From positions 62,001-126,000 of the forward strand of contig NZ_SNUE01000001.1 of assembly GCF_012027425.1 (NCBI RefSeq): a DNA stretch of 64,000 nt. The letters are read 5' to 3'. Positions within the stretch are counted from its first letter, which is position 1; each line of letters starts with the position of its first letter. The notes below the pieces were generated by a model. It was not told the DNA's origin, made no database searches, and saw nothing but the letters and a program-made list of their open reading frames with translations. The position numbers and the translations under genes are program-made. Shown here one piece after another: positions 29,396 through 39,840 of this stretch. This DNA is from Thermococcus sp. MV5. GTDB lineage: Archaea > Methanobacteriota_B > Thermococci > Thermococcales > Thermococcaceae.

Positions 29396-30325
29396 ATGAA
29401 AAAGTTGATCATAGACCCCTACGAGATAAAATTTCTCGCAGGGTTATTCATGGCTTTCTTAATCCTCTTTCTCCTTATCATCTCTGTGATATCATTTACA
29501 CTTGCGAGGAGTAGAGCCCCACGAGAAGCCTTCCTTGGAGTGTTGACATATTTGGTATTCGCGGTAATTGTGATGAGTATTTTAGCATTTTGCCTAAAGA
29601 AAATAAGAGAAGGACCCAAAAAGGCCACTCTGCTAGCTAAGCAAACAATCTTCGAGAGAAATCGTTTAATCTTCCCCATGGAACTTGAATTTGAGTACGG
29701 TAGAATGGAGCTTCTTAGCTCTCCTGAAAGAATGGGTTCAAAAAAGGAGTTCAAAGTTATAGAAAGAAAAAAGACCTCGATCTTTGAATTTCCAGATGAA
29801 GATTTCAAACTCGTGGCTACTTACGAAAAAGGATTTGCCAGCTTTCCAGCTGTTAAAATACTTACAAAAGCCTATGAAAGAACAGTACTCCTCTTTATGA
29901 CCAATAAAGGGGAAGTAACTGTCAAAAAACTCATCCCATCTTCAATTCTAAGGAGTAATATGGACGTTGAGATAAGGGGAGAAGAAAAAGAGTTAGTAAG
30001 AAGGCTTTATAAATTACCAAACCAACGAGAGAAGGTTGAGATATTTTTAAGTGCCCCTGAAAGTCCTAAGACTAGTGTAAAGATAGCAGATTCCTCAGCG
30101 GAAGAGTTTAGATACTCCATGGTTCCAAACGAAAGAATTGTAATATTCAGCCACTACGGAAGCTTGAGTATGGAAAACCTACTGAGAACTTTGAACTCCT
30201 CAAAAATCATCCTCGGACATGGAGAATTCCTAGTGATGTTCAAGCTATCAAAACCTAAAAGAGGAGAACTGGCTTCTTACAAATTCAAAGTCGAACTTAA
30301 AGAGGGAGAAGGGTGGGGCGTCTGA
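29396..30325 (+). CDS. membrane protein, GHG-motif family member 1
   Basis: 309 residues: two N-terminal membrane helices (about 12-35 and 46-66) then a soluble domain. Its end, NSSKIILGHGEFLVMFKL, recurs in the two paralogues at 39840 and 40625 ([30 protein letters not shown]). Each copy has an earlier H-Y/E/H element ([21 protein letters not shown]). No named family recognised. It starts directly after the hydrolase stop and overlaps the following protease start by one base. Confidence 0.7.
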   Translation: MKKLIIDPYEIKFLAGLFMAFLILFLLIISVISFTLARSRAPREAFLGVLTYLVFAVIVMSILAFCLKKIREGPKKATLLAKQTIFERNRLIFPMELEFEYGRMELLSSPERMGSKKEFKVIERKKTSIFEFPDEDFKLVATYEKGFASFPAVKILTKAYERTVLLFMTNKGEVTVKKLIPSSILRSNMDVEIRGEEKELVRRLYKLPNQREKVEIFLSAPESPKTSVKIADSSAEEFRYSMVPNERIVIFSHYGSLSMENLLRTLNSSKIILGHGEFLVMFKLSKPKRGELASYKFKVELKEGEGWGV

Positions 30326-31116
30326 TGCTGATCGATACCTTTCCCTGTTTCCTAACGTACTGGGATGGGAGTAAAGATTCGTGGATCGAGTACATTAAAA
30401 ACTACCCAGAGCTCTTTGAGAAAATAAAGTGGGACTATGAGCGTTATAAGATGGATTGGCATGAATATCTAAAACTCCTTTCCAAAAGACGTGCTGATGA
30501 ACTGAAGCTTGCCCATGAGAATCTTTTGAAGATTCTTCCTGAAGTGGAAGAAGATGTGAAGAAGCTATTTGATGTTAGAGATTATAATATCGTCATCTAC
30601 GTCGGTCTTGAAAATGGAGCTGGATGGGTCACAGAATTTAAGGGAAAACCTTCAATCCTCTTCGGCCTTGAGGCCATTGCCGAACTTGGATGGTACAAAA
30701 AGCTTAAGGGACTTGCTGCACATGAATTCGGCCACTTAATTCACTGGCTGTTAAGAAAAGAAAATGTAGAAAACCTTGAAGATGAACAAATAATGTGGCT
30801 TTACACAGAAGGATTTGCTCAGAGGATTGAAGACTTAATAAGCAGAAGACCGTGGCATCTCGAAGAGAAGGGTTGGTTTGAGTGGTGTGAAAGGAATGAG
30901 GAAGTTATCAAAAAGGAATTTTTAAGAAGAGTTGAAGAAAAAGAGCCTTTAAATCCATTCTTTGGTTCCTGGTACACCCTTTTTGGAAAACAATACTTAG
31001 GCTACTATCTTGGATACAAATTCATTTGTCGGCTTGAACAAGAGTACTCACTAGAAGAGATTGCAACAATGGAAAAAGAAGTAATTAAAAGAAAAATTCT
31101 GGAGTTTCTTCGCTAA
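30325..31116 (+). CDS. HExxH zinc metalloprotease-like protein
   Basis: 263 residues from the ATG that overlaps the preceding TGA (TGATG at 30323-30327). HEFGHLIHW (about residue 138) is a HExxH zinc motif in the context [14 protein letters not shown], and a Glu-rich region follows ([14 protein letters not shown]), where the Glu could be the third ligand. No signal peptide, so probably cytosolic. Resembles uncharacterised archaeal proteins; substrate unknown. Last gene of the three-gene operon with the hydrolase and the membrane protein. Confidence 0.72.
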
Positions 31117-32132
31117 ATATTTTCTCTTAAGTCAATTATGTGCTCAAGCTCAGGCCCTGTCTTTATAAGCCCAACTGGAACGCCTACCTTTTCTTCTATT
31201 TCTTCTATGAATTCTTTTGCTTTCTTTGGAAGTTTATCAAAGTCTGTGACGCCAAATGCCTCTTTGTCGTATTTGTCGAGCATTGTGATTGCTAGCATTG
31301 TAGCACCATTTATTCTGGCTGAATAGCGTGCAAATTCAAAGTCAAACCAACCTACTCTTCTTCTCCTTCCTGTAACTGTGCCGTATTCAACAAGGCCCAT
31401 GCGATCAGCCTCTTCTTCACTCATCTCTGTTGGAAATGGCCCAGCGCCAACTCTCGTTGGAAAGCTCTTGAAGACCACTATTACATCATCAACCCTTGTT
31501 GGACCTATTCCAACGTCACTGGCCATTGCAGAGGCCGAAGTGTCTTTAGAAGTAACGTAGGGATAGCTTCCGTAATAGAGACTTAATCCAAACCCCTGTG
31601 TCCCTTCAACCAAAACAAGCTTGCCTTCGTCAAGGGCATCGTTGACCTCTTGAGCAACGTCTGTTAGATAAGGTTCAAGTTCTTTAAGGTCCTTCACCTG
31701 CCTAGCTTTCCTTAATGCTCTATCTGCATTTGCAGGGCCGCAGCCGGAGCCAGTAGTTCCTATTTTCCCATGGAGATAACCATTACTCCGGTCAAGCTCT
31801 TTATGCCCTGGTTCAATTATAGTACAACGATAGTCAAGGCCTACCCTTCCCTCGACATTAAAGTCCTTTAAGTGCTCAAGTTCATGGAAGAAGACCTCAG
31901 GATCAACCAAAACTCCAGCCCCAACTAGAAGTCTTGCATTTTCATTCATAAAACCTGTAGGAAGCTGTCTTACCGCATATTTTTTCCCGTTTATAAAAAC
32001 GCTGTGTCCAGCGTTTGTTCCTACTCCACCCCTTGCTATGACCTCTGGTTTATCGTGTATCGCGAGATAAGCGATTATTGAACCTTTTCCTTCATCTCCC
32101 CATTGACCACCAACAACTATGTAACTTGGCAT
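31113..32132 (-). CDS. purA: adenylosuccinate synthetase
   Basis: 339 residues, the shortened form found in Thermococcales (bacterial enzymes are about 430). GTP loop [13 protein letters not shown] at the N-terminus, catalytic His in [49 protein letters not shown] with TSKDTS. It converts IMP and Asp to adenylosuccinate in AMP synthesis. Transcribed alone on the minus strand and convergent (4-base overlap) with the metalloprotease gene. Confidence 0.95.
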
Positions 32133-32224
32133 GGCTCCTTACCCATAGTTAAGAGAATAACATCTTTAAAACAGTTTCGGATGAGGTAAACGATAAAAAT
32201 TGACAAGAGAATGTCAAAATTTAT

Positions 32225-32271
32225 CTTCTTGTTGCTTGCAAAACCCCTTGCGAAAGCGGGGGATAATTCAC
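32225..32271 (+). mobile_element. IS200/IS605 right-end-like mini element, degenerate copy D
   Basis: About 47 bp after TTTAT (32220-32224). It starts CTTCT as copy E does, then AAAACCCC-TTGCGAAA-GCGGGG and ends GATAATTCAC. It is the least conserved copy. The stop codon of the M1-like peptidase gene (TGA, 32268-32270 on the minus strand) lies inside its terminus. Confidence 0.35.
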
Positions 32272-33953
32272 TCGATCACAATTTTAACACCGCTTATCTG
32301 ATATTCCGTGTTTTTGTTTATTATCCAATCACAAGGATCAAGAATTACAGTTACTGGGTTTCCTTCACACTCAATGCTAACTCTAGCTTCCCTTTCTATC
32401 CAAATTCTCTTTACAGTACTCCCTTTATCTGTCTCCACTTTTATCTCGAGGGGAATTGTAAAGTTGCTTTCATCAACGACCTCAAAGGTCAAGAGACACT
32501 TCCCATTATTCTGAACAATGGTGAGATTCTTGACCTTATAATCAGGCACCCTTGCTGAGTAGAACCATTCATCAAAAAACCAGTCCAAATCTTGGTTGCT
32601 TACATTTTCAAAGATCTCTTGGATTCTACTTACCCCGCAACTTATGTAATGACATTCATTTACAACCTGCCTCAATCCTTTAAAAAATGTCTCGTTGCCA
32701 AGAACGAATTGCAGAGAGCGAAACACAAAACCTCCTTTGCGGTAGACTATAGGATACATTTCTCTTTGGCTCAAGGAGGCTCTGTAGGCACTGGCTAGTG
32801 AGATATTCTGCTTCATGCTAATATTTTCAGAAAAATCCAAAAAATCAAAAGGCACGTCCTCAGACCGAGTGAGCACGTACGCCATAGCGGAAAATGTAGC
32901 AAGAGACTCGGACATTCTACCTAAATCCACATATGCCTCAAACCATGAATGAGATATTTCATGAGACAATAGCCACCCATCATAACCTCCAGCAGAGACC
33001 AGAACAAAGCTTCCCCCAACGTTCAATCCACTATGGGGCCTAATAAGCCTCGAAATCACTACGTTAAGAGAGTCATAAGGGTAAATCCCGTACCATCGGG
33101 AAAATATTTCCACTATGTCTTCAACCTGCAAAAGTACTGTCTCACCTTTTTCTCTTTCGTTTAGTGGCATGTAGACCGTGAGATTTACACTTTTTTCGCG
33201 AAGACTAAGGGTTTTTGCAAACCTATCGAACCTTCCAATGAGAATGAGTGGAAAAGATCGATTTTCCTGCTCAAAGTGTAGAATTCTCTGATTGGTAGAG
33301 ACTTCTGAATTCACGAACTTCCATGGAGTGTATGAAGAAGAATCCACAACAAAGCCCCACCAGTCTATTGGCAACTTTAAAATAAGTGCGTTGTTTGTTT
33401 TTGTACCTTTTAGTGCCACAAACGGAAAATACATTGATGTCAAGATCGTTTCTTCCTTGTCTATTAAGCTCTGATTGATCAGTGCTCCAAAAAAGCCCAA
33501 TCCAGATGGCAGTGTATTCTTCCAGTTAAACTCATAATCAAGTGTTATCTCCGCTGTTTTTCCTTTTAAGGGCTCAAATGTTAAATAAATAACGTCTTTT
33601 CCTTGGGAAACTGAGGCACTTATCAGCTTTGCGTTTCTCAGCTTAAGGGTTCTGATTTTTATGGCGGGGTAGAGATAAGAGATTGCTACCCTTCCAATGC
33701 TTACATTCCCCACATTCTTTAATGTTAAGGTTTCGTTTGCCCTTATTGTCCCATTCTCAAAGAAAAGCATTTCAACAAAAGAACTGTATTCAAAAGTTGT
33801 TGAGCTTTCTAGGTAAGAAGTGATAGTAAGGTTTGATGGACAGAGGTTTGAGACATCAATTACTATTTCATTACTTCCTTCACCCATTTTATGCCATACA
33901 AATGCCGAAGTAGTTAAAATTAAAAGAATAAGTACTAAAGCAACTCTTTTCAT
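32268..33953 (-). CDS. secreted M1-like gluzincin metallopeptidase
   Basis: 561 residues. N-terminal signal or anchor helix (VALVLILLILTTSAFVW), an all-beta region, then the zinc site LLSHEISHSWFEAYVDLGRMSE, with HExxH and the third-ligand Glu in SESLATF as in M1 aminopeptidases. Helical C-terminal part includes WFFDEWFYSARVPDYKVKN, also typical of M1. The GAMEN motif of true M1 aminopeptidases is replaced by GGSFVLVSAGG, so the exact activity is uncertain. Final gene of a five-gene secreted-protein operon. Confidence 0.82.
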   Translation of the reverse strand: MKRVALVLILLILTTSAFVWHKMGEGSNEIVIDVSNLCPSNLTITSYLESSTTFEYSSFVEMLFFENGTIRANETLTLKNVGNVSIGRVAISYLYPAIKIRTLKLRNAKLISASVSQGKDVIYLTFEPLKGKTAEITLDYEFNWKNTLPSGLGFFGALINQSLIDKEETILTSMYFPFVALKGTKTNNALILKLPIDWWGFVVDSSSYTPWKFVNSEVSTNQRILHFEQENRSFPLILIGRFDRFAKTLSLREKSVNLTVYMPLNEREKGETVLLQVEDIVEIFSRWYGIYPYDSLNVVISRLIRPHSGLNVGGSFVLVSAGGYDGWLLSHEISHSWFEAYVDLGRMSESLATFSAMAYVLTRSEDVPFDFLDFSENISMKQNISLASAYRASLSQREMYPIVYRKGGFVFRSLQFVLGNETFFKGLRQVVNECHYISCGVSRIQEIFENVSNQDLDWFFDEWFYSARVPDYKVKNLTIVQNNGKCLLTFEVVDESNFTIPLEIKVETDKGSTVKRIWIEREARVSIECEGNPVTVILDPCDWIINKNTEYQISGVKIVIE

Positions 33954-33956
33954 ACA

Positions 33957-35624
33957 TCACCCTCCTTGAATATAAAACCCAACTTCTGTGTAGTTACCGG
34001 TTTCAACACCATAACTACGTGGATAGGCTGTGAATTCCTTCGCTAATCTTCTGGTAGAGTACCTATCCACACCTGCTATCACCGCTATGAAGTTCTTCTC
34101 GTTCCATGGGTTTCTTATGACTTCAAAAACTCCCAAAGGATATCCATAAAGTACTCCACTCCCATCAACCTCAGTATAAACCGTTTCCTTGATTGTAAAG
34201 CCTGTAAAGAGTCTAAAGCCAGTTGTGTTCTTTTCCAAAATCCACACCCCGTTAAATACAAATTGAATCGGAAGATGAAGGTCATTCACTATCCCATTCG
34301 CAGCAGGCCCCCCAATGAGTATGAGGTTGGCTTTCAAGTCCTCTTCACCAAGCTCGTCCTCGGACTTTACAATAATTTTTGGTCTGCCGTTATAGAGCCT
34401 CCAAGTGTCATCATTCTCTAAAAGATTCTTAAGCATGAAAGCAGTCTCTTTATCGTATTCCATCCCACTCTGATCCGGATTTTTAATGCCATAAACTATT
34501 ATGATTTTTCTTTCCAAATAACCTCTATCAAAAAATCTAAACCCGCTGGGTGGAACCCTCTTCTCAAAGTATTCACTAACATTTTCCGAAGTTGCCCATT
34601 CTTTCATGTGCTCTATTAACCTTGGGATATAATCCTCAAGGGTCTCATTTGTCTTCTTTGAACTCTTAAAAATCTTAAACTCATCCATTAAATCCCCAAC
34701 CAAGTGGTATCCCATTGTATGATCCCTCAAGACGGAATATTTCGGGAGATCGTGAACAAGATCGTACCTAAGGCTCAGCAGAAGATAGTTTGTCAATGCT
34801 TCAACAAGATTCTCGGAGAGATAGATATAGTTTGTATCAAAGTGCTTATCATAAGCAGTATAAGCGAGTTCACTTTTAACTTCTTGAAGATAATACTCAA
34901 CCTCTGAAAATTCAGATAAATAGTCTGAAACAAGAGGGTTGATAAATGTGTGAGAATACTCATGAGTGGCCAAGAAAAGATAGAAAATCTCAGCATATTG
35001 TTCGGGCATAAAAGCAACGTAGCCGAAATAATATGCAACTTCACCAACCACTCTGCTCCCGGGATGGACTCTCAAAGAGTATGATAGAGCTATGTGGAAA
35101 GTCTTATACTGATATCCAAAGAATTCCTCAAACCCTTGAAAAAGTTCCAAAGTGAGCACTCTTTTGGCCGGCTCTAAAACTTTCTCGTATTCTCCTCTAT
35201 GGGCCTCATAGAACTCCACAAAGTTGCTCTCCTTCGCAAAACTCACAAAAGTCCTATAGAACTCACTCAAAAAGGGATCGTTCTCACTCATATTGCCAAG
35301 ATAGGGCATAGATGTCAGTTTTGCCGCAAATTCGTTTATCGAGTAATCTCTGGTGTAGTGAGGTAGATCTTTAGGAATTGTCTCTCTCATCAAGTACACA
35401 GCAGGATGATCTTTGTAGGAATCAAAATACGCCAAAACATCGCTAATATAGCTCTGAGGAGCTATTATAAAGGGATCGCTTCCGTTAAAGGCTAAGATAT
35501 ACACAACGGCAAAAAGCTCGAGGTTTGGATTTACCTCAATGATTATTTCAGGAGCTTCTGCAGAGACTTGAGGAAAAGTAGAGACAATAAGAATGAGGAA
35601 TAACACAAAGGATGGCCTCTTCAT
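33957..35624 (-). CDS. secreted DUF4932-type HExxH protein
   Basis: 555 residues with a clear signal peptide (SFVLFLILIVSTFPQVSAEA). The central domain has FLATHEYSHTFINPLVSDYL, the HExSHxFINP pattern of DUF4932, a predicted zinc metalloprotease family. A C-terminal segment (AFMLKNLLENDDTWRLYNGR; LILIGGPAANGIVN) resembles S-layer-associated Rossmann-like modules. Only 3 bases separate it from the M1-like gene downstream, so both predicted proteases should be made together. Confidence 0.78.
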   Translation of the reverse strand: MKRPSFVLFLILIVSTFPQVSAEAPEIIIEVNPNLELFAVVYILAFNGSDPFIIAPQSYISDVLAYFDSYKDHPAVYLMRETIPKDLPHYTRDYSINEFAAKLTSMPYLGNMSENDPFLSEFYRTFVSFAKESNFVEFYEAHRGEYEKVLEPAKRVLTLELFQGFEEFFGYQYKTFHIALSYSLRVHPGSRVVGEVAYYFGYVAFMPEQYAEIFYLFLATHEYSHTFINPLVSDYLSEFSEVEYYLQEVKSELAYTAYDKHFDTNYIYLSENLVEALTNYLLLSLRYDLVHDLPKYSVLRDHTMGYHLVGDLMDEFKIFKSSKKTNETLEDYIPRLIEHMKEWATSENVSEYFEKRVPPSGFRFFDRGYLERKIIIVYGIKNPDQSGMEYDKETAFMLKNLLENDDTWRLYNGRPKIIVKSEDELGEEDLKANLILIGGPAANGIVNDLHLPIQFVFNGVWILEKNTTGFRLFTGFTIKETVYTEVDGSGVLYGYPLGVFEVIRNPWNEKNFIAVIAGVDRYSTRRLAKEFTAYPRSYGVETGNYTEVGFYIQGG

Positions 35625-35666
35625 GGCCTCACCTTAAGTTGTTGGAAGATAAAAATATAAAATTTT

Positions 35667-36740
35667 TCAAGTACCTTTAACAATCTTGTAAGCATTTGGA
35701 TCACCTTCTATGTAGACAGTGTCACCTTCAAGCTTTATATGCCACGGTGTAGCAGAAATTTTCTCGCATTCTATGAGTTCAAGATTCTTTGTGAAAACAC
35801 AAAGCTTTAAGTCACTCCTACCAACCCAATCCGATAAATAATACGCCAATGCAATAAATCCCTCATTCACATCAACTTTCAAATCAGCCCCAAGAATGTA
35901 ATGATCAACGTTTCTTGCTTGAACTTGCTTGAACTTGTACTCTCTGCTCTTTAAATCATAAACGCTGACATAAACGTAAGTCTTCTGTTCAGAACTAATT
36001 GAGCGATATGAGGCATAATAAACCTTCCCATTAAAAATTTTCAAATTCGAAATAGCCTTCCCCATGAGCTTTAAAGAGAAGAGAAGTTCTCCACTGGAAA
36101 GTTTAACCCCATAGATAGTAGGCGGAATATTATAAGGATCCACATTAGTAGGTCTGTTAGAGAAAATTAAGAGTCCATCCTCGTAGTACTCAAAAAACGG
36201 TATGCCACCCTCAACGATTTTCTCCCACCGCACACTTAGATTATAATCCAAGAATAACACTCGCGATCTAACAAGTCCATCAGGATAATACGAGATAAGG
36301 AAAATACCCTCCGGGAAACAAGCATACTTCCCATCAACACCCCTCAAAGTGAAATTGATAATTTCATCTCCTTTGTGAATAATAAATGAAACATTATTCA
36401 ATATTTCGCCATGATACACTTTTTGAACCTCAATCCCTACGGAACAAGTAAAATTGACCTTCTCCTCCTCAAAAGTGACGTTTTTTGGTGCTGGAACTGT
36501 AACAATCGTGTACTTAGTTTTTGTTTCATTTAGAACTGTGTTGTTTGTTAAAATATTTTCATAGGGAGGATTTCCTTTTACTGTATTAGTTTTATTTGGA
36601 ACAAAAGTGGATGAAGCCTTTATTGTCTCTGTCTGGTTTGAGGTTATAATAGGCTGATTATAATAGACAAACGCAACTATCAAAGTAATAAAAATACAAA
36701 GGGATAAAAAGAGCAAAAGTACTGGGATTCTCTTATTCAC
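35667..36740 (-). CDS. anchored protein, triplicated family member 3
   Basis: 357 residues: N-terminal membrane anchor (VLLLFLSLCIFITLIVAFVY), a Thr/Asn-rich linker (about 30-90), then a beta-rich domain that looks propeller-like. Conserved segments shared with the two upstream genes: GKYACFPEGIFLISYYPDG, VLFLDYNLSVRWEK and the end KLCVFTKNLELIECEK followed by WHIKLEGDTVYIEGD. No catalytic motif visible. Probably an extracytoplasmic surface protein; function unknown. Confidence 0.65.
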   Translation of the reverse strand: MNKRIPVLLLFLSLCIFITLIVAFVYYNQPIITSNQTETIKASSTFVPNKTNTVKGNPPYENILTNNTVLNETKTKYTIVTVPAPKNVTFEEEKVNFTCSVGIEVQKVYHGEILNNVSFIIHKGDEIINFTLRGVDGKYACFPEGIFLISYYPDGLVRSRVLFLDYNLSVRWEKIVEGGIPFFEYYEDGLLIFSNRPTNVDPYNIPPTIYGVKLSSGELLFSLKLMGKAISNLKIFNGKVYYASYRSISSEQKTYVYVSVYDLKSREYKFKQVQARNVDHYILGADLKVDVNEGFIALAYYLSDWVGRSDLKLCVFTKNLELIECEKISATPWHIKLEGDTVYIEGDPNAYKIVKGT

Positions 36741-36753
36741 TTGTCATTCCCCC

Positions 36754-37686
36754 CTAAGGTGCTATGATTTTATAAGTCTTGACACTACCATCCCTAAACT
36801 GGACATATATCATATTGTCCTTCAGCTTTATTCGCCGAGGCTTCTTGTCAAAGCTTTTGCATGCTACTTTAATCAAATGTCTGCTTGTGAAAACGCACAA
36901 GCCGTTCCTCCGGTTTCCTTCTTCATTAGCAAGAAAATAAGCAACTGCGACGTATTTATTGTTGGCATCAACCCAGAATCCTGCACCAAGGGCACTGCCA
37001 CCAATGCTCGCAACACGGGCTTTTCTAACCTTGCTCTCTTCGACGAGATACAATTCTCCATTGGTTCTAACCCATAAAAATTTAGTCTCAACATATACTA
37101 CCACAAAATAATATCTGTCTTTGAGAATTTTAACATGGGAGATACTAAAGCCTCTTGGAACTTCAGGACAGAATTTAAAAGTCAAATCTCCAGCAGTGAC
37201 ATTTATCACATATACACACGACTCAATCCCCTGCTCAAAACTCCCATGCTTTACAAGAAGTAAAGAACCGCTCTCATAATATTCAGGTAGGACAAGACCC
37301 CTAAATTTTTTCCTCCACTCTTCACTGAAATTATAACTCAAGAACACCATTGAAGTATCCCCAGCAGGATCACCCGGGTAATAAGCATACAGCAGGATTC
37401 CATCTGAAAGACAAAGATACTCACCAGTAACACCCTCCAATGTAGAATTAGCCAGAATAACATTACCCCCAAGTATAGTGAAATTTACATAGTGAGCAAG
37501 ACGATACTGGTAGTAATTGGCTTTTATTTCAAACGGGCACTGTTTAAGGGAAGTATTATAACTCTCAAAACCATGATTCAATGCATCTTTTAACTCAACT
37601 ACTAGGCCTTTGGGAGAAAGATAAAAAATCAGGAAAGATAAAAATAGAAAAATTAATAATTTCTCCTTCTTTTTCATTGAAACCAC
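36754..37686 (-). CDS. anchored protein, triplicated family member 2
   Basis: 310 residues from the longest start; the MKKKEKLLIFLFLSFLIFYL anchor begins at the second Met (about 37677). It repeats the family segments: GEYLCLSDGILLYAYYPGD, VFLSYNFSEEWRKK, VLPEYYESGSLLLV, and the end GLCVFTSRHLIKVACKSF with RIKLKDNMIYVQF. Starts inside the end of member 1 (13-base overlap) and is separated by 13 bases from member 3. Function unknown. Confidence 0.65.
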   Translation of the reverse strand: MVSMKKKEKLLIFLFLSFLIFYLSPKGLVVELKDALNHGFESYNTSLKQCPFEIKANYYQYRLAHYVNFTILGGNVILANSTLEGVTGEYLCLSDGILLYAYYPGDPAGDTSMVFLSYNFSEEWRKKFRGLVLPEYYESGSLLLVKHGSFEQGIESCVYVINVTAGDLTFKFCPEVPRGFSISHVKILKDRYYFVVVYVETKFLWVRTNGELYLVEESKVRKARVASIGGSALGAGFWVDANNKYVAVAYFLANEEGNRRNGLCVFTSRHLIKVACKSFDKKPRRIKLKDNMIYVQFRDGSVKTYKIIAP

Positions 37687-38606
37687 CTTTTTTGAACTAT
37701 GAGAAATTTCCTCACTCTATCTCCTGTTCTTACGATTAAATTATTTCCTTCAAGTTTAAGTGCATCAACCTCTTCCCCAACATCAACACATCTGCTCCCG
37801 CTCAATTTAGAAGTAAACACACAAACAGTCGACTCATAAGCAACTGCAAGGTATTTCTCACCGGCAAACGTAAAAATTCTTTTTGGTAATTTCACCTTGA
37901 TCCTTCCCATATAATCTCCAGATTTCGTATAAAGAAACAATCCATCAGGGGTAGCTACATAAATCCTATTCTGAAAAATAGTTGCTCCTATGAGTGAATG
38001 AGGTTTTATATCACAAATCTTTCCTAATGATCCGGTGTTGAACTCAATGTAGTAAAGACAAGGATGTGCACACTCATTCGTACGTGGATGTCTGTTTATA
38101 ATAAAAAAGAAAGCATAGTCCCTATCAGCATATGACGCGAGAAGATCAAGAACTGTATAATCTAGATACTTCTCGTAAATTTTTTTCCAATACTTTATTT
38201 TGAGATGATATGAGAAAGTTGTTACTTCTATTCTATCTGTATCTCCACTGTAAACGATGAACCCATCCTTAAAGTAAAAATATCCTATCCACATCACTCC
38301 ATCTGATGTGTAATTACCAATAACGTTACCCTTAGACTCTTTGAATTCAAAGAAACCACAATAAGAGTTTTCTTCACAGATTACTGGGTTTGATATAATC
38401 TGAGCATTGATTTTAACTGGAGGGGTAAACCACATGGGAATATAATCGAGAACCCTGCCATTGACAAGCCATTTTCCACCCAAAGGATAATCAAAGGAAT
38501 TGTTCATGGATACAGGCACTTCAACAATATCTATAGACTCAGAAATTAGGAAGTACAAAAGAAGAAAGAGAACAGGGAATAAAAAGAACGAATAACGTTT
38601 CTTCAT
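37674..38606 (-). CDS. anchored protein, triplicated family member 1
   Basis: 310 residues with an N-terminal anchor (YSFFLFPVLFLLLYFLIS). It is the most diverged of the three: GNYTSDGVMWIGYFYFKDG, TTFSYHLKIKYWKK, and the shared ending TVCVFTSKLSGSRCVDVGE with ALKLEGNNLIVRTGD. First gene of the five-gene minus-strand operon; the intergenic region upstream contains the only candidate promoter. Function unknown. Confidence 0.62.
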   Translation of the reverse strand: MKKRYSFFLFPVLFLLLYFLISESIDIVEVPVSMNNSFDYPLGGKWLVNGRVLDYIPMWFTPPVKINAQIISNPVICEENSYCGFFEFKESKGNVIGNYTSDGVMWIGYFYFKDGFIVYSGDTDRIEVTTFSYHLKIKYWKKIYEKYLDYTVLDLLASYADRDYAFFFIINRHPRTNECAHPCLYYIEFNTGSLGKICDIKPHSLIGATIFQNRIYVATPDGLFLYTKSGDYMGRIKVKLPKRIFTFAGEKYLAVAYESTVCVFTSKLSGSRCVDVGEEVDALKLEGNNLIVRTGDRVRKFLIVQKRWFQ

Positions 38607-38622
38607 GAGTCCTCCCCCCGAA

Positions 38623-38724
38623 TTATAATTTCTTGATATGCTCTATCAATCCATGCGGAATTCTGTGAACTCGATGCATCTGGGACAAAACATCCACCAC
38701 AATGCCTATTGCACCCCTACACAT
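38623..38724 (-). CDS. possible 33-residue ORF upstream of the triplicated family
   Basis: ATG 38724 with GGGAG 7 bases upstream encodes MCRGAIGIVVDVLSQMHRVH, continuing to HGLIEHIKKL. It ends 17 bases before member 1 of the secreted family. The Cys2 start and hydrophobic/amphipathic pattern look protein-like, but it may be the remnant of a larger gene. No family recognised. The rest of the 310-base gap 38607-38916 shows only a TATA-like ATATAGTATAA on the minus strand and AT-rich sequence before the epimerase gene. Confidence 0.25.
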   Translation of the reverse strand: MCRGAIGIVVDVLSQMHRVHRIPHGLIEHIKKL

Positions 38725-38916
38725 GAGGAAACTCCCGTTATACTATATGTAAACGTAACATAAAAACATTCCGTTAAAAGAATAGTCTTATAGGGATATC
38801 GATCAAAGAAGATTATAACCTTAGTACTCATGATCAATAGCACATCTCAAAACTGTAAAGTTCGCACTCCACAAATTATAAATTCACTAAGGAGAATTCA
38901 AAACAAGGGGAAAGCC

Positions 38917-39840
38917 ATGATAAAGGACAAACTCATTATCGTCACGGGAGGAGCTGGCTTTATAGGTTCACACATCGCCGAGGAGCTCAGCAAAGATAAC
39001 GATGTTATTGTTATCGACAATCTCTATGCTGGTAAAATCGAGAATGTCCCACAAAATGTGAAGTTCATTCAAGCTGATATCAGAGATTACAAAAGTATAG
39101 CAGAGCTGATTTCCCAAGCAGATTACGTTTTTCATGAGGCCGCTCTTGTGAGTGTGGTTGAAAGTGTAGAAAGGCCACTCTTGACAGAAGAAATAAACGT
39201 TCTAGGCACATTAAATATTTTAAAAGCATTAAGTGATGGGCATGGAAAATTAATCTTTGCTTCATCTGCAGCCGTTTATGGGAATAATCAGAACTTACCC
39301 CTAAAAGAAAGTGAAAAGCCTAAACCTCTCTCGCCCTATGGGGTAACAAAAGTATCTGGGGAATATTACTGCAAAGTCTTTTATGAGCTCTATGGAGTCC
39401 CAACAGTAAGCTTGAGATACTTCAACGTCTTTGGAGAGAGACAAGGGTATAATCAGTATGCAGGAGTTATAAGCATCTTCATCAACAGAGCTCTCAAAGG
39501 CGAACCTCTTATTATCTACGGCGATGGGAAGCAAACAAGAGACTTCATCTATGTTAAGGATGTTGTCAAGGCCAATATACTCGCAGCTGAGAGCAGTAAA
39601 GCAAATGGAAGAGTATTCAATGTCGCAAAGGGAGAGAGAACAACTATTTTAGAGCTCGCCCTTAAAATCATCGGTGCTACAGAGTCTTCAAGCTCAATAC
39701 TCTTTGACAAGCCAAGGCCCGGTGATGTAAAGCATAGCCAAGCAGATATAAGTGGAATCAAAAAGCTTGGTTTTAAGCCAGAATACTCCCTCGAAGAAGG
39801 TCTCTTAAGAACCATAGAATGGTATCGGGGGAAAACCTAA
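38917..39840 (+). CDS. NAD-dependent sugar epimerase (UDP-glucose 4-epimerase-like)
   Basis: 307 residues from ATG 38917 (GGGG a few bases upstream; a longer ATG at 38830 lacks a ribosome site and adds a non-family extension). Extended SDR: NAD loop VTGGAGFIGSHIAEEL, FASSAAVYGNN (Ser), catalytic SPYGVTKVSGEYYC (YxxxK), RYFNVFGERQ, and GKQTRDFIYVKDVVKANI. Likely acts on UDP-glucose/galactose or GlcNAc in glycan or lipid glycosylation. Its TAA overlaps the ATG of the next gene (TAATG). Confidence 0.88.
   Translation: MIKDKLIIVTGGAGFIGSHIAEELSKDNDVIVIDNLYAGKIENVPQNVKFIQADIRDYKSIAELISQADYVFHEAALVSVVESVERPLLTEEINVLGTLNILKALSDGHGKLIFASSAAVYGNNQNLPLKESEKPKPLSPYGVTKVSGEYYCKVFYELYGVPTVSLRYFNVFGERQGYNQYAGVISIFINRALKGEPLIIYGDGKQTRDFIYVKDVVKANILAAESSKANGRVFNVAKGERTTILELALKIIGATESSSSILFDKPRPGDVKHSQADISGIKKLGFKPEYSLEEGLLRTIEWYRGKT

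What the first reader, a model, noticed from the sequence alone, without database searches (positions are those of the whole stretch)
32268..38606. Operon of three exported paralogues and two predicted secreted zinc proteases
Seen: five minus-strand genes with overlaps or gaps of 3-42 bases; each begins with a signal or anchor helix. The first three share segments such as YYPDG and CVFT....C near the end. The last two have HExxH sites (M1-like and DUF4932). Inference: the proteases may act on, or be inhibited by, the three anchored proteins, or all may form a surface peptide-handling system. No described system of this make-up is known to me.
Basis: partly seen in the sequence, partly recalled or inferred. 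Interest (0 to 1): 0.6.

Follow-up and report, generated by a model that had tools for sequence, protein, structure and literature searches.

The report
Surface protease pair beside propeller genes
Five neighbouring genes of a heat-loving archaeon encode two surface metal-dependent proteases and three membrane-anchored propeller-like proteins; comparison with 93 relatives shows a locus assembled from separate mobile pieces, whose proteases belong to families that in other species accompany genes for making a chemically modified Cys-rich peptide.

Summary
The five-gene minus-strand run is real (32268-38606), and two of its genes are HExxH proteases. It is not a conserved five-part system. In 13 Thermococcales genomes the DUF4932 gene sits beside purA, so it is the old core. 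The M1-like gene joins it at purA in only 3 genomes; in the near relative G080 it is absent and 20 bp stand in its place. The three paralogues (membrane-anchored, propeller-like) form a 3.2-kb insert, also absent in G080. Their usual partner is another secreted protein (c10), whose cut-off 3' end survives at 38607-38715; elsewhere they mostly occur without proteases. New lead: paralogues of both proteases accompany a radical-SAM RiPP locus. In 7 of 7 loci with the closest (CefB-like) maturase, an M1-like or DUF4932 gene is the next gene, beside a Cys-rich precursor of a family in no library searched (leader EFxI[IL]ExGSxExxAGN) and an exporter without peptidase domain. The window genome lacks that maturase and precursor. 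Best reading: envelope peptidases of a RiPP-processing type, orphaned here, with the propeller proteins as passengers. Active-site residues are conserved; proteolysis and substrate are inferred.

The parts
37674..38606 (-). P0001, N-terminal membrane anchor plus paralogue domain; first paralogue
   Evidence: 97.2% DNA identity to G093:C41 over 37670-38710
36754..37686 (-). P0002, second anchored paralogue
35667..36740 (-). P0003, third anchored paralogue; AlphaFold2 model all-beta, pLDDT 82; Foldseek best hits are BamB/PQQ-type propellers (E 8e-7, low TM 0.2-0.4)
33957..35624 (-). P0004, signal peptide, DUF4932 zinc protease domain (27-337; HEYSH 221-225, invariant E271 as candidate third ligand), C-terminal S-layer-type domain (~418-532)
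32268..33953 (-). P0005, exported M1-like metalloprotease (HEISH 331-335, E349, Y404; no GAMEN motif)
38607..38715 (-). remnant: last ~35 codons of a c10 gene (secreted Cys-rich protein), the usual upstream partner of the paralogues
35669..38867 (.). 3.2-kb stretch with the three paralogues; 47 bp stand in its place in G080 (locus L086)
32219..33971 (.). 1.75-kb stretch with the M1-like gene; 20 bp stand in its place in G080
31113..32132 (-). purA (adenylosuccinate synthetase), conserved flank
38830..39840 (+). NAD-dependent epimerase/dehydratase, conserved divergent flank in most purA-site genomes

Best explanation
The locus is a composite cell-surface gene island, not one machine. Its core is an exported DUF4932 zinc protease held at the cell wall by an S-layer-type domain and kept beside purA. 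An exported M1-like protease was added in some genomes. A cassette of propeller-like membrane proteins was inserted upstream and lost its usual partner gene c10. The proteases belong to families that elsewhere in Thermococcales accompany a Cys-rich, radical-SAM-modified peptide (RiPP), so the likely mechanism is cutting of exported peptides outside the membrane. In the RiPP loci this would remove the leader (or trim the peptide) after export by an ABC transporter that has no peptidase of its own. In this genome, which lacks that maturase and precursor, the pair would act as orphan surface peptidases on peptides made elsewhere. Shown: gene order, insertions, homology, conserved active-site residues, linkage to the RiPP loci. 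Inferred: export, proteolysis, substrates.
For: DUF4932 beside purA in 13 genomes of three genera; M1 beside it in 3; paralogues beside it in 2 plus one remnant. Exact absences in G080. c10 remnant and paralogue-c10 co-occurrence, 21 genomes shared where 9.6 are expected, Fisher 1e-7, phylogeny not corrected. Active-site residues invariant in 23 DUF4932 and 16 M1-like proteins. dN/dS 0.10-0.14 (DUF4932) and 0.18-0.29 (M1), so both are under purifying selection. All 7 loci with a maturase >=49% identical have M1 or DUF4932 as the next gene and a precursor with the shared leader motif. The exporter ATPase and permease show no peptidase domain. Precedents: M1 leader peptidases AplP, NosP, MicP2, some encoded outside their cluster (PMC10885120, PMC13039773); DUF4932 in bacterial LanB/radical-SAM clusters (PMC5410138).
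Against: The window genome has neither maturase nor precursor (only two SPASM-scoring frames), so the RiPP role is carried over from paralogues. The purA-site DUF4932 copies form their own clade and persist in genomes that also carry RiPP loci (G078, G084, G086), so they may have a different job. About half of the examined DUF4932 loci away from purA have no radical-SAM gene next to them. The genome is 96% complete, so a missed RiPP locus cannot be excluded.
Confidence: 0.55

Rival explanations
1. Ordinary nutrition: two surface peptidases of a peptide-eating archaeon that digest environmental peptides, unrelated to any RiPP.
For: Own genome lacks the RiPP parts. Standalone M1-like copies exist without radical-SAM genes (L094, L095, L113, L114). 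Thermococcales feed on peptides (general knowledge).
Against: Both families are strongly linked to radical-SAM/precursor loci. The M1-like family lacks the GAMEN motif expected of a general aminopeptidase.
Confidence: 0.27
2. Orphan immunity: the pair destroys Cys-rich RiPPs released by competing Thermococcales.
For: Paralogues travel with the peptide loci; copies are kept where the peptide is not made; fast evolution relative to purA.
Against: No evidence that the RiPP is toxic or that it is the substrate. Some producers also carry the purA-site copy.
Confidence: 0.1
3. One reading: the three anchored proteins and two proteases form one peptide-handling or protease-inhibitor system.
For: Same strand, 3-42-base spacing, probably co-transcribed.
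Against: Insertion boundaries, c10 remnant, and most paralogue loci without proteases.
Confidence: 0.06
4. Assembly artefact joining unrelated genes.
For: Genome is a 101-contig assembly; P0001 is 97% identical to a small contig of another genus.
Against: The same junctions occur independently: DUF4932-M1-purA in G076 and G092; paralogue near DUF4932 in G083; paralogue remnant at the same place in G076.
Confidence: 0.02

Closest known systems
AplP / NosP / MicP2, M1-family RiPP leader peptidases (bacteria)
   Same: M1 homology; HExxH, third Glu and catalytic Tyr conserved; M1 leader peptidases may be encoded outside the cluster
   Different: GAMEN absent here though reported as conserved in NosP, AplP and E. 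coli PepN (PMC13039773); exported, archaeal, shorter; linked to radical-SAM Cys-rich peptides, not lanthipeptides or microviridins; activity untested
DUF4932 (PF16286)
   Same: P0004 is a member by curated cut-off; one paper notes DUF4932 in bacterial LanB/radical-SAM clusters as a putative metalloprotease (PMC5410138)
   Different: Here it carries an S-layer-type C-terminal domain and a stable purA-side copy without a RiPP
CefB / Clo7bot-type radical SAM-SPASM peptide maturases (NF038107, TIGR04334)
   Same: Full-length match of the maturase in the related loci (353 bits to CefB)
   Different: Below both equivalog cut-offs (600); precursors match no Pfam or NCBIfam model; absent from the window genome
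BamB/PQQ-type beta-propellers
   Same: All-beta model; top Foldseek hits are BamB, tetrathionate hydrolase and designed propellers
   Different: TM-scores 0.2-0.4, no sequence match, anchored by an N-terminal helix

Membership tests
Peptidase family M1 | Profile match | tested here: met
   PF01433 35.9 bits, cut-off 27.7; profile A3 vs ERAP2 1.1e-17
Peptidase family M1 | HExxH zinc site and third Glu | tested here: met
   H331, E332, H335, E349 invariant in 16; spacing to the Glu shortened by 5 residues
Peptidase family M1 | Catalytic Tyr | tested here: met
   Y404 invariant, aligns with the VSYNKGA Tyr of ERAP2
Peptidase family M1 (aminopeptidase) | GAMEN exopeptidase motif | tested here: not met
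   No GAMEN or conserved Glu at this place; it may be an endopeptidase
DUF4932 | Profile match over nearly full length | tested here: met
   79.6 bits, cut-off 28.7, positions 1-330 of 332
S-layer-type wall domain (PF05124) | Profile or structural match | tested here: met
   25.0 bits, cut-off 23.9; profile A2 vs M. voltae wall-anchoring domain 9fsa 0.0028; Foldseek prob 1.00, TMt 0.56, E 0.024
Beta-propeller (three paralogues) | Blade repeat or fold | tested here: inconclusive
   Foldseek E 8e-7, prob 1.00, but TM 0.2-0.4
RiPP gene cluster (window locus itself) | Maturase and precursor nearby or in genome | tested here: not met
RiPP gene cluster (related loci, e.g. L079, L080, L083, L084, L108) | Precursor, maturase, exporter, peptidase together | tested here: met
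   product untested
CefB equivalog | Score above cut-off | tested here: not met
   352.7 of 600 bits
M1 RiPP leader peptidase (AplP type) | Cleaves a RiPP leader | not testable with these tools
   Needs enzyme assay

The most novel reading that the evidence does not exclude
The M1-like/DUF4932 pair is the dedicated extracellular leader-processing module of an undescribed archaeal RiPP family, and the orphan pair in the window works in trans on such peptides, maturing or destroying peptides from neighbouring cells.
Probability: 0.25. Interest if true: 0.65.

Novelty: new variant of a known kind. Interest (0 to 1): 0.4.

Why it matters
The five-gene set looks like a chance assembly. But the route through it exposes a Thermococcales peptide locus (Cys-rich precursor, CefB-like radical-SAM maturase, exporter, M1-like and DUF4932 proteases) that I found in no paper of the library searched. 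It gives DUF4932, a family without assigned function, a testable one: peptide processing at the cell surface.

Tried and rejected
A protease-inhibitor role for the paralogues: no co-conservation. A hidden RiPP precursor beside the window operon: no convincing Cys-rich ORF and no room between the genes. A full-length c10 partner elsewhere in the own genome: no match. Maturase or precursor in the own genome: none. A published Thermococcales RiPP: paper searches gave nothing relevant. The BcsB hits of the DUF4932 model (TM about 0.2) were judged uninformative.

Full report
Observation. The five minus-strand ORFs are present as described. Spacings in order of transcription are -13, +13, +42 and +3 bases. 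P0001-P0003 are paralogues: P0002/P0003 30% identity, E 1e-27; P0001/P0002 E 8e-5. P0004 is DUF4932 with a C-terminal S_layer_C domain; P0005 is M1-like.

Structure and residues. P0003 models as an N-terminal helix, a disordered linker and an all-beta domain (pLDDT 82). Its best PDB matches are BamB/PQQ-type propellers, E 8e-7, but with low TM-scores, so a propeller is probable, not proven. P0004 models with high confidence (pLDDT 90.9). Its C-terminal part matches the wall-anchoring domain of the Methanococcus voltae S-layer protein. H221, E222, H225 and E271 are invariant in 23 DUF4932 relatives. H331, E332, H335, E349 and Y404 are invariant in 16 M1-like relatives. The profile aligns with ERAP2 and other M1 enzymes (1e-17), with Y404 on the M1 catalytic Tyr, but the GAMEN motif is missing.

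Distribution. 94 Thermococcales genomes were searched with P0003, P0005 and P0004 and 60 regions were read (maps). DUF4932 sits beside purA in G000, G075, G076, G078, G080, G083, G084, G086, G087 (two copies), G089, G090, G092 and G093. M1 is between it and purA only in G000, G076 and G092. Paralogues lie upstream in G000 (three) and G083 (one, with c10 and c81), with a 78-residue remnant in G076.

Assembly of the locus. Against G080 (locus L086), window 35669-38867 replaces 47 bp and 32219-33971 replaces 20 bp, so the paralogue cassette and the M1 gene are separate units. Directly upstream of P0001, 38607-38715 encodes the last ~35 codons of c10 in the same relative position as in G093:C41 and G076. 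Of the 18 paralogue loci read, nine have c10 next to them, and the window plus three others (L058, L061, L062) show c10 fragments. Genomes with paralogues and with c10 overlap (21 shared, 9.6 expected, p 1e-7, uncorrected for phylogeny). P0001 is 97% identical in DNA to a contig of another genus, while purA is 76-77% identical; this is recent transfer or misbinning of that 4.5-kb contig. Synonymous divergence G000-G076 is 1.47 for DUF4932, 0.39 for M1, 0.48 for P0001 and 0.22 for purA, so neighbouring genes seem to have different histories; dN/dS stays at 0.10-0.38 for the five-gene families.

RiPP link. In other loci both protease families accompany radical-SAM/SPASM maturases. The closest library model is CefB (353 bits, below its 600-bit cut-off). 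Seven loci carry a maturase at least 49% identical to that of L083 (G008, G047, G060, G061, G078, G084, G086). In all seven the next gene is M1-like or DUF4932. All seven also have a 62-77-aa precursor with leader EFxI[IL]ExGSxExxAG(N) and 9-13 Cys, often spaced CxxxC (G047 and G078 deviate by one leader residue). The four to six precursors scanned match no Pfam or NCBIfam model. Beside most are an ABC ATPase, a winged-helix protein and an ABC-2 permease without peptidase domain. With about four such protease genes among roughly 2000 per genome (estimate), adjacency in seven of seven is not chance, although some loci are related by descent or transfer. Further DUF4932 genes (L066, L085, L103, L107, L109, L110) lie next to more distant radical-SAM genes or fragments.

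Trees. The purA-site DUF4932 of the window's genus forms a supported clade apart from RiPP-locus copies. The window M1 groups with G076 and G092 (100/100), then with a RiPP-locus M1 of G086 (84/90, long branches). The window genome itself has no such maturase or precursor.

Mechanism. The most economical reading is that both proteases act outside the membrane on exported peptides. In RiPP loci they would remove the leader, because the exporter has no peptidase domain. M1 enzymes do this in bacteria (AplP, NosP, MicP2; PMC10885120, PMC13039773), and DUF4932 has been noted in bacterial LanB/radical-SAM clusters (PMC5410138). Lack of GAMEN argues for endopeptidase rather than aminopeptidase action (inference). 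In the window genome the pair is an orphan and its substrate is unknown. The paralogues are passengers unless shown otherwise.

Verdict. Observation confirmed; interpretation partly supported; the five-gene system is not a unit. The protease/RiPP association is the part worth following.

Noticed in passing
L079:1030-1251, L080:12561-12776, L081:11871-12083, L083:7702-7935, L084:12151-12378, L108:7150-7362, L064:4977-5165: Seven Cys-rich precursor peptides with shared leader EFxI[IL]ExGSxExxAG(N), next to CefB-like radical-SAM maturases; those scanned match nothing in Pfam or NCBIfam.
   Followed up: partly
L084:1-18555 (G078): One locus combines radical-SAM genes, precursor, two M1-like genes and DUF4932 with SagB-, SagC- and SagD-type azole-forming genes (TIGR03605, TIGR03603, TIGR03604).
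   Followed up: partly
window 31113-33953; L071, L080, L081, L094, L095, L098, L099, L100, L103, L105, L108: DUF4932 and M1-like genes repeatedly lie near purine genes at different chromosomal places: purA, the purS/purQ/purL/purP region, guaB. Unexplained.
   Followed up: no
window 30313-31116: A third HExxH protein (DUF5700, putative zinc peptidase, 9.2e-6) lies convergent to purA and is kept at this place in most relatives.
   Followed up: no
window 37670-38710 vs L070: 97.2% DNA identity with a 4.5-kb contig assigned to another genus, whereas purA is 76-77% identical: recent transfer or misbinned contig.
   Followed up: partly
L096:1660-1836: A 58-aa M1 remnant directly upstream of a DUF4932 gene (G084:C210): decay of a former pair.
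   Followed up: no
L057, L059, L060, L063, L069, L070, L077, L082, L092: c10, a secreted Cys-rich protein with a helical segment and no Pfam family, is the regular upstream neighbour of the propeller-like proteins; function unknown.
   Followed up: partly
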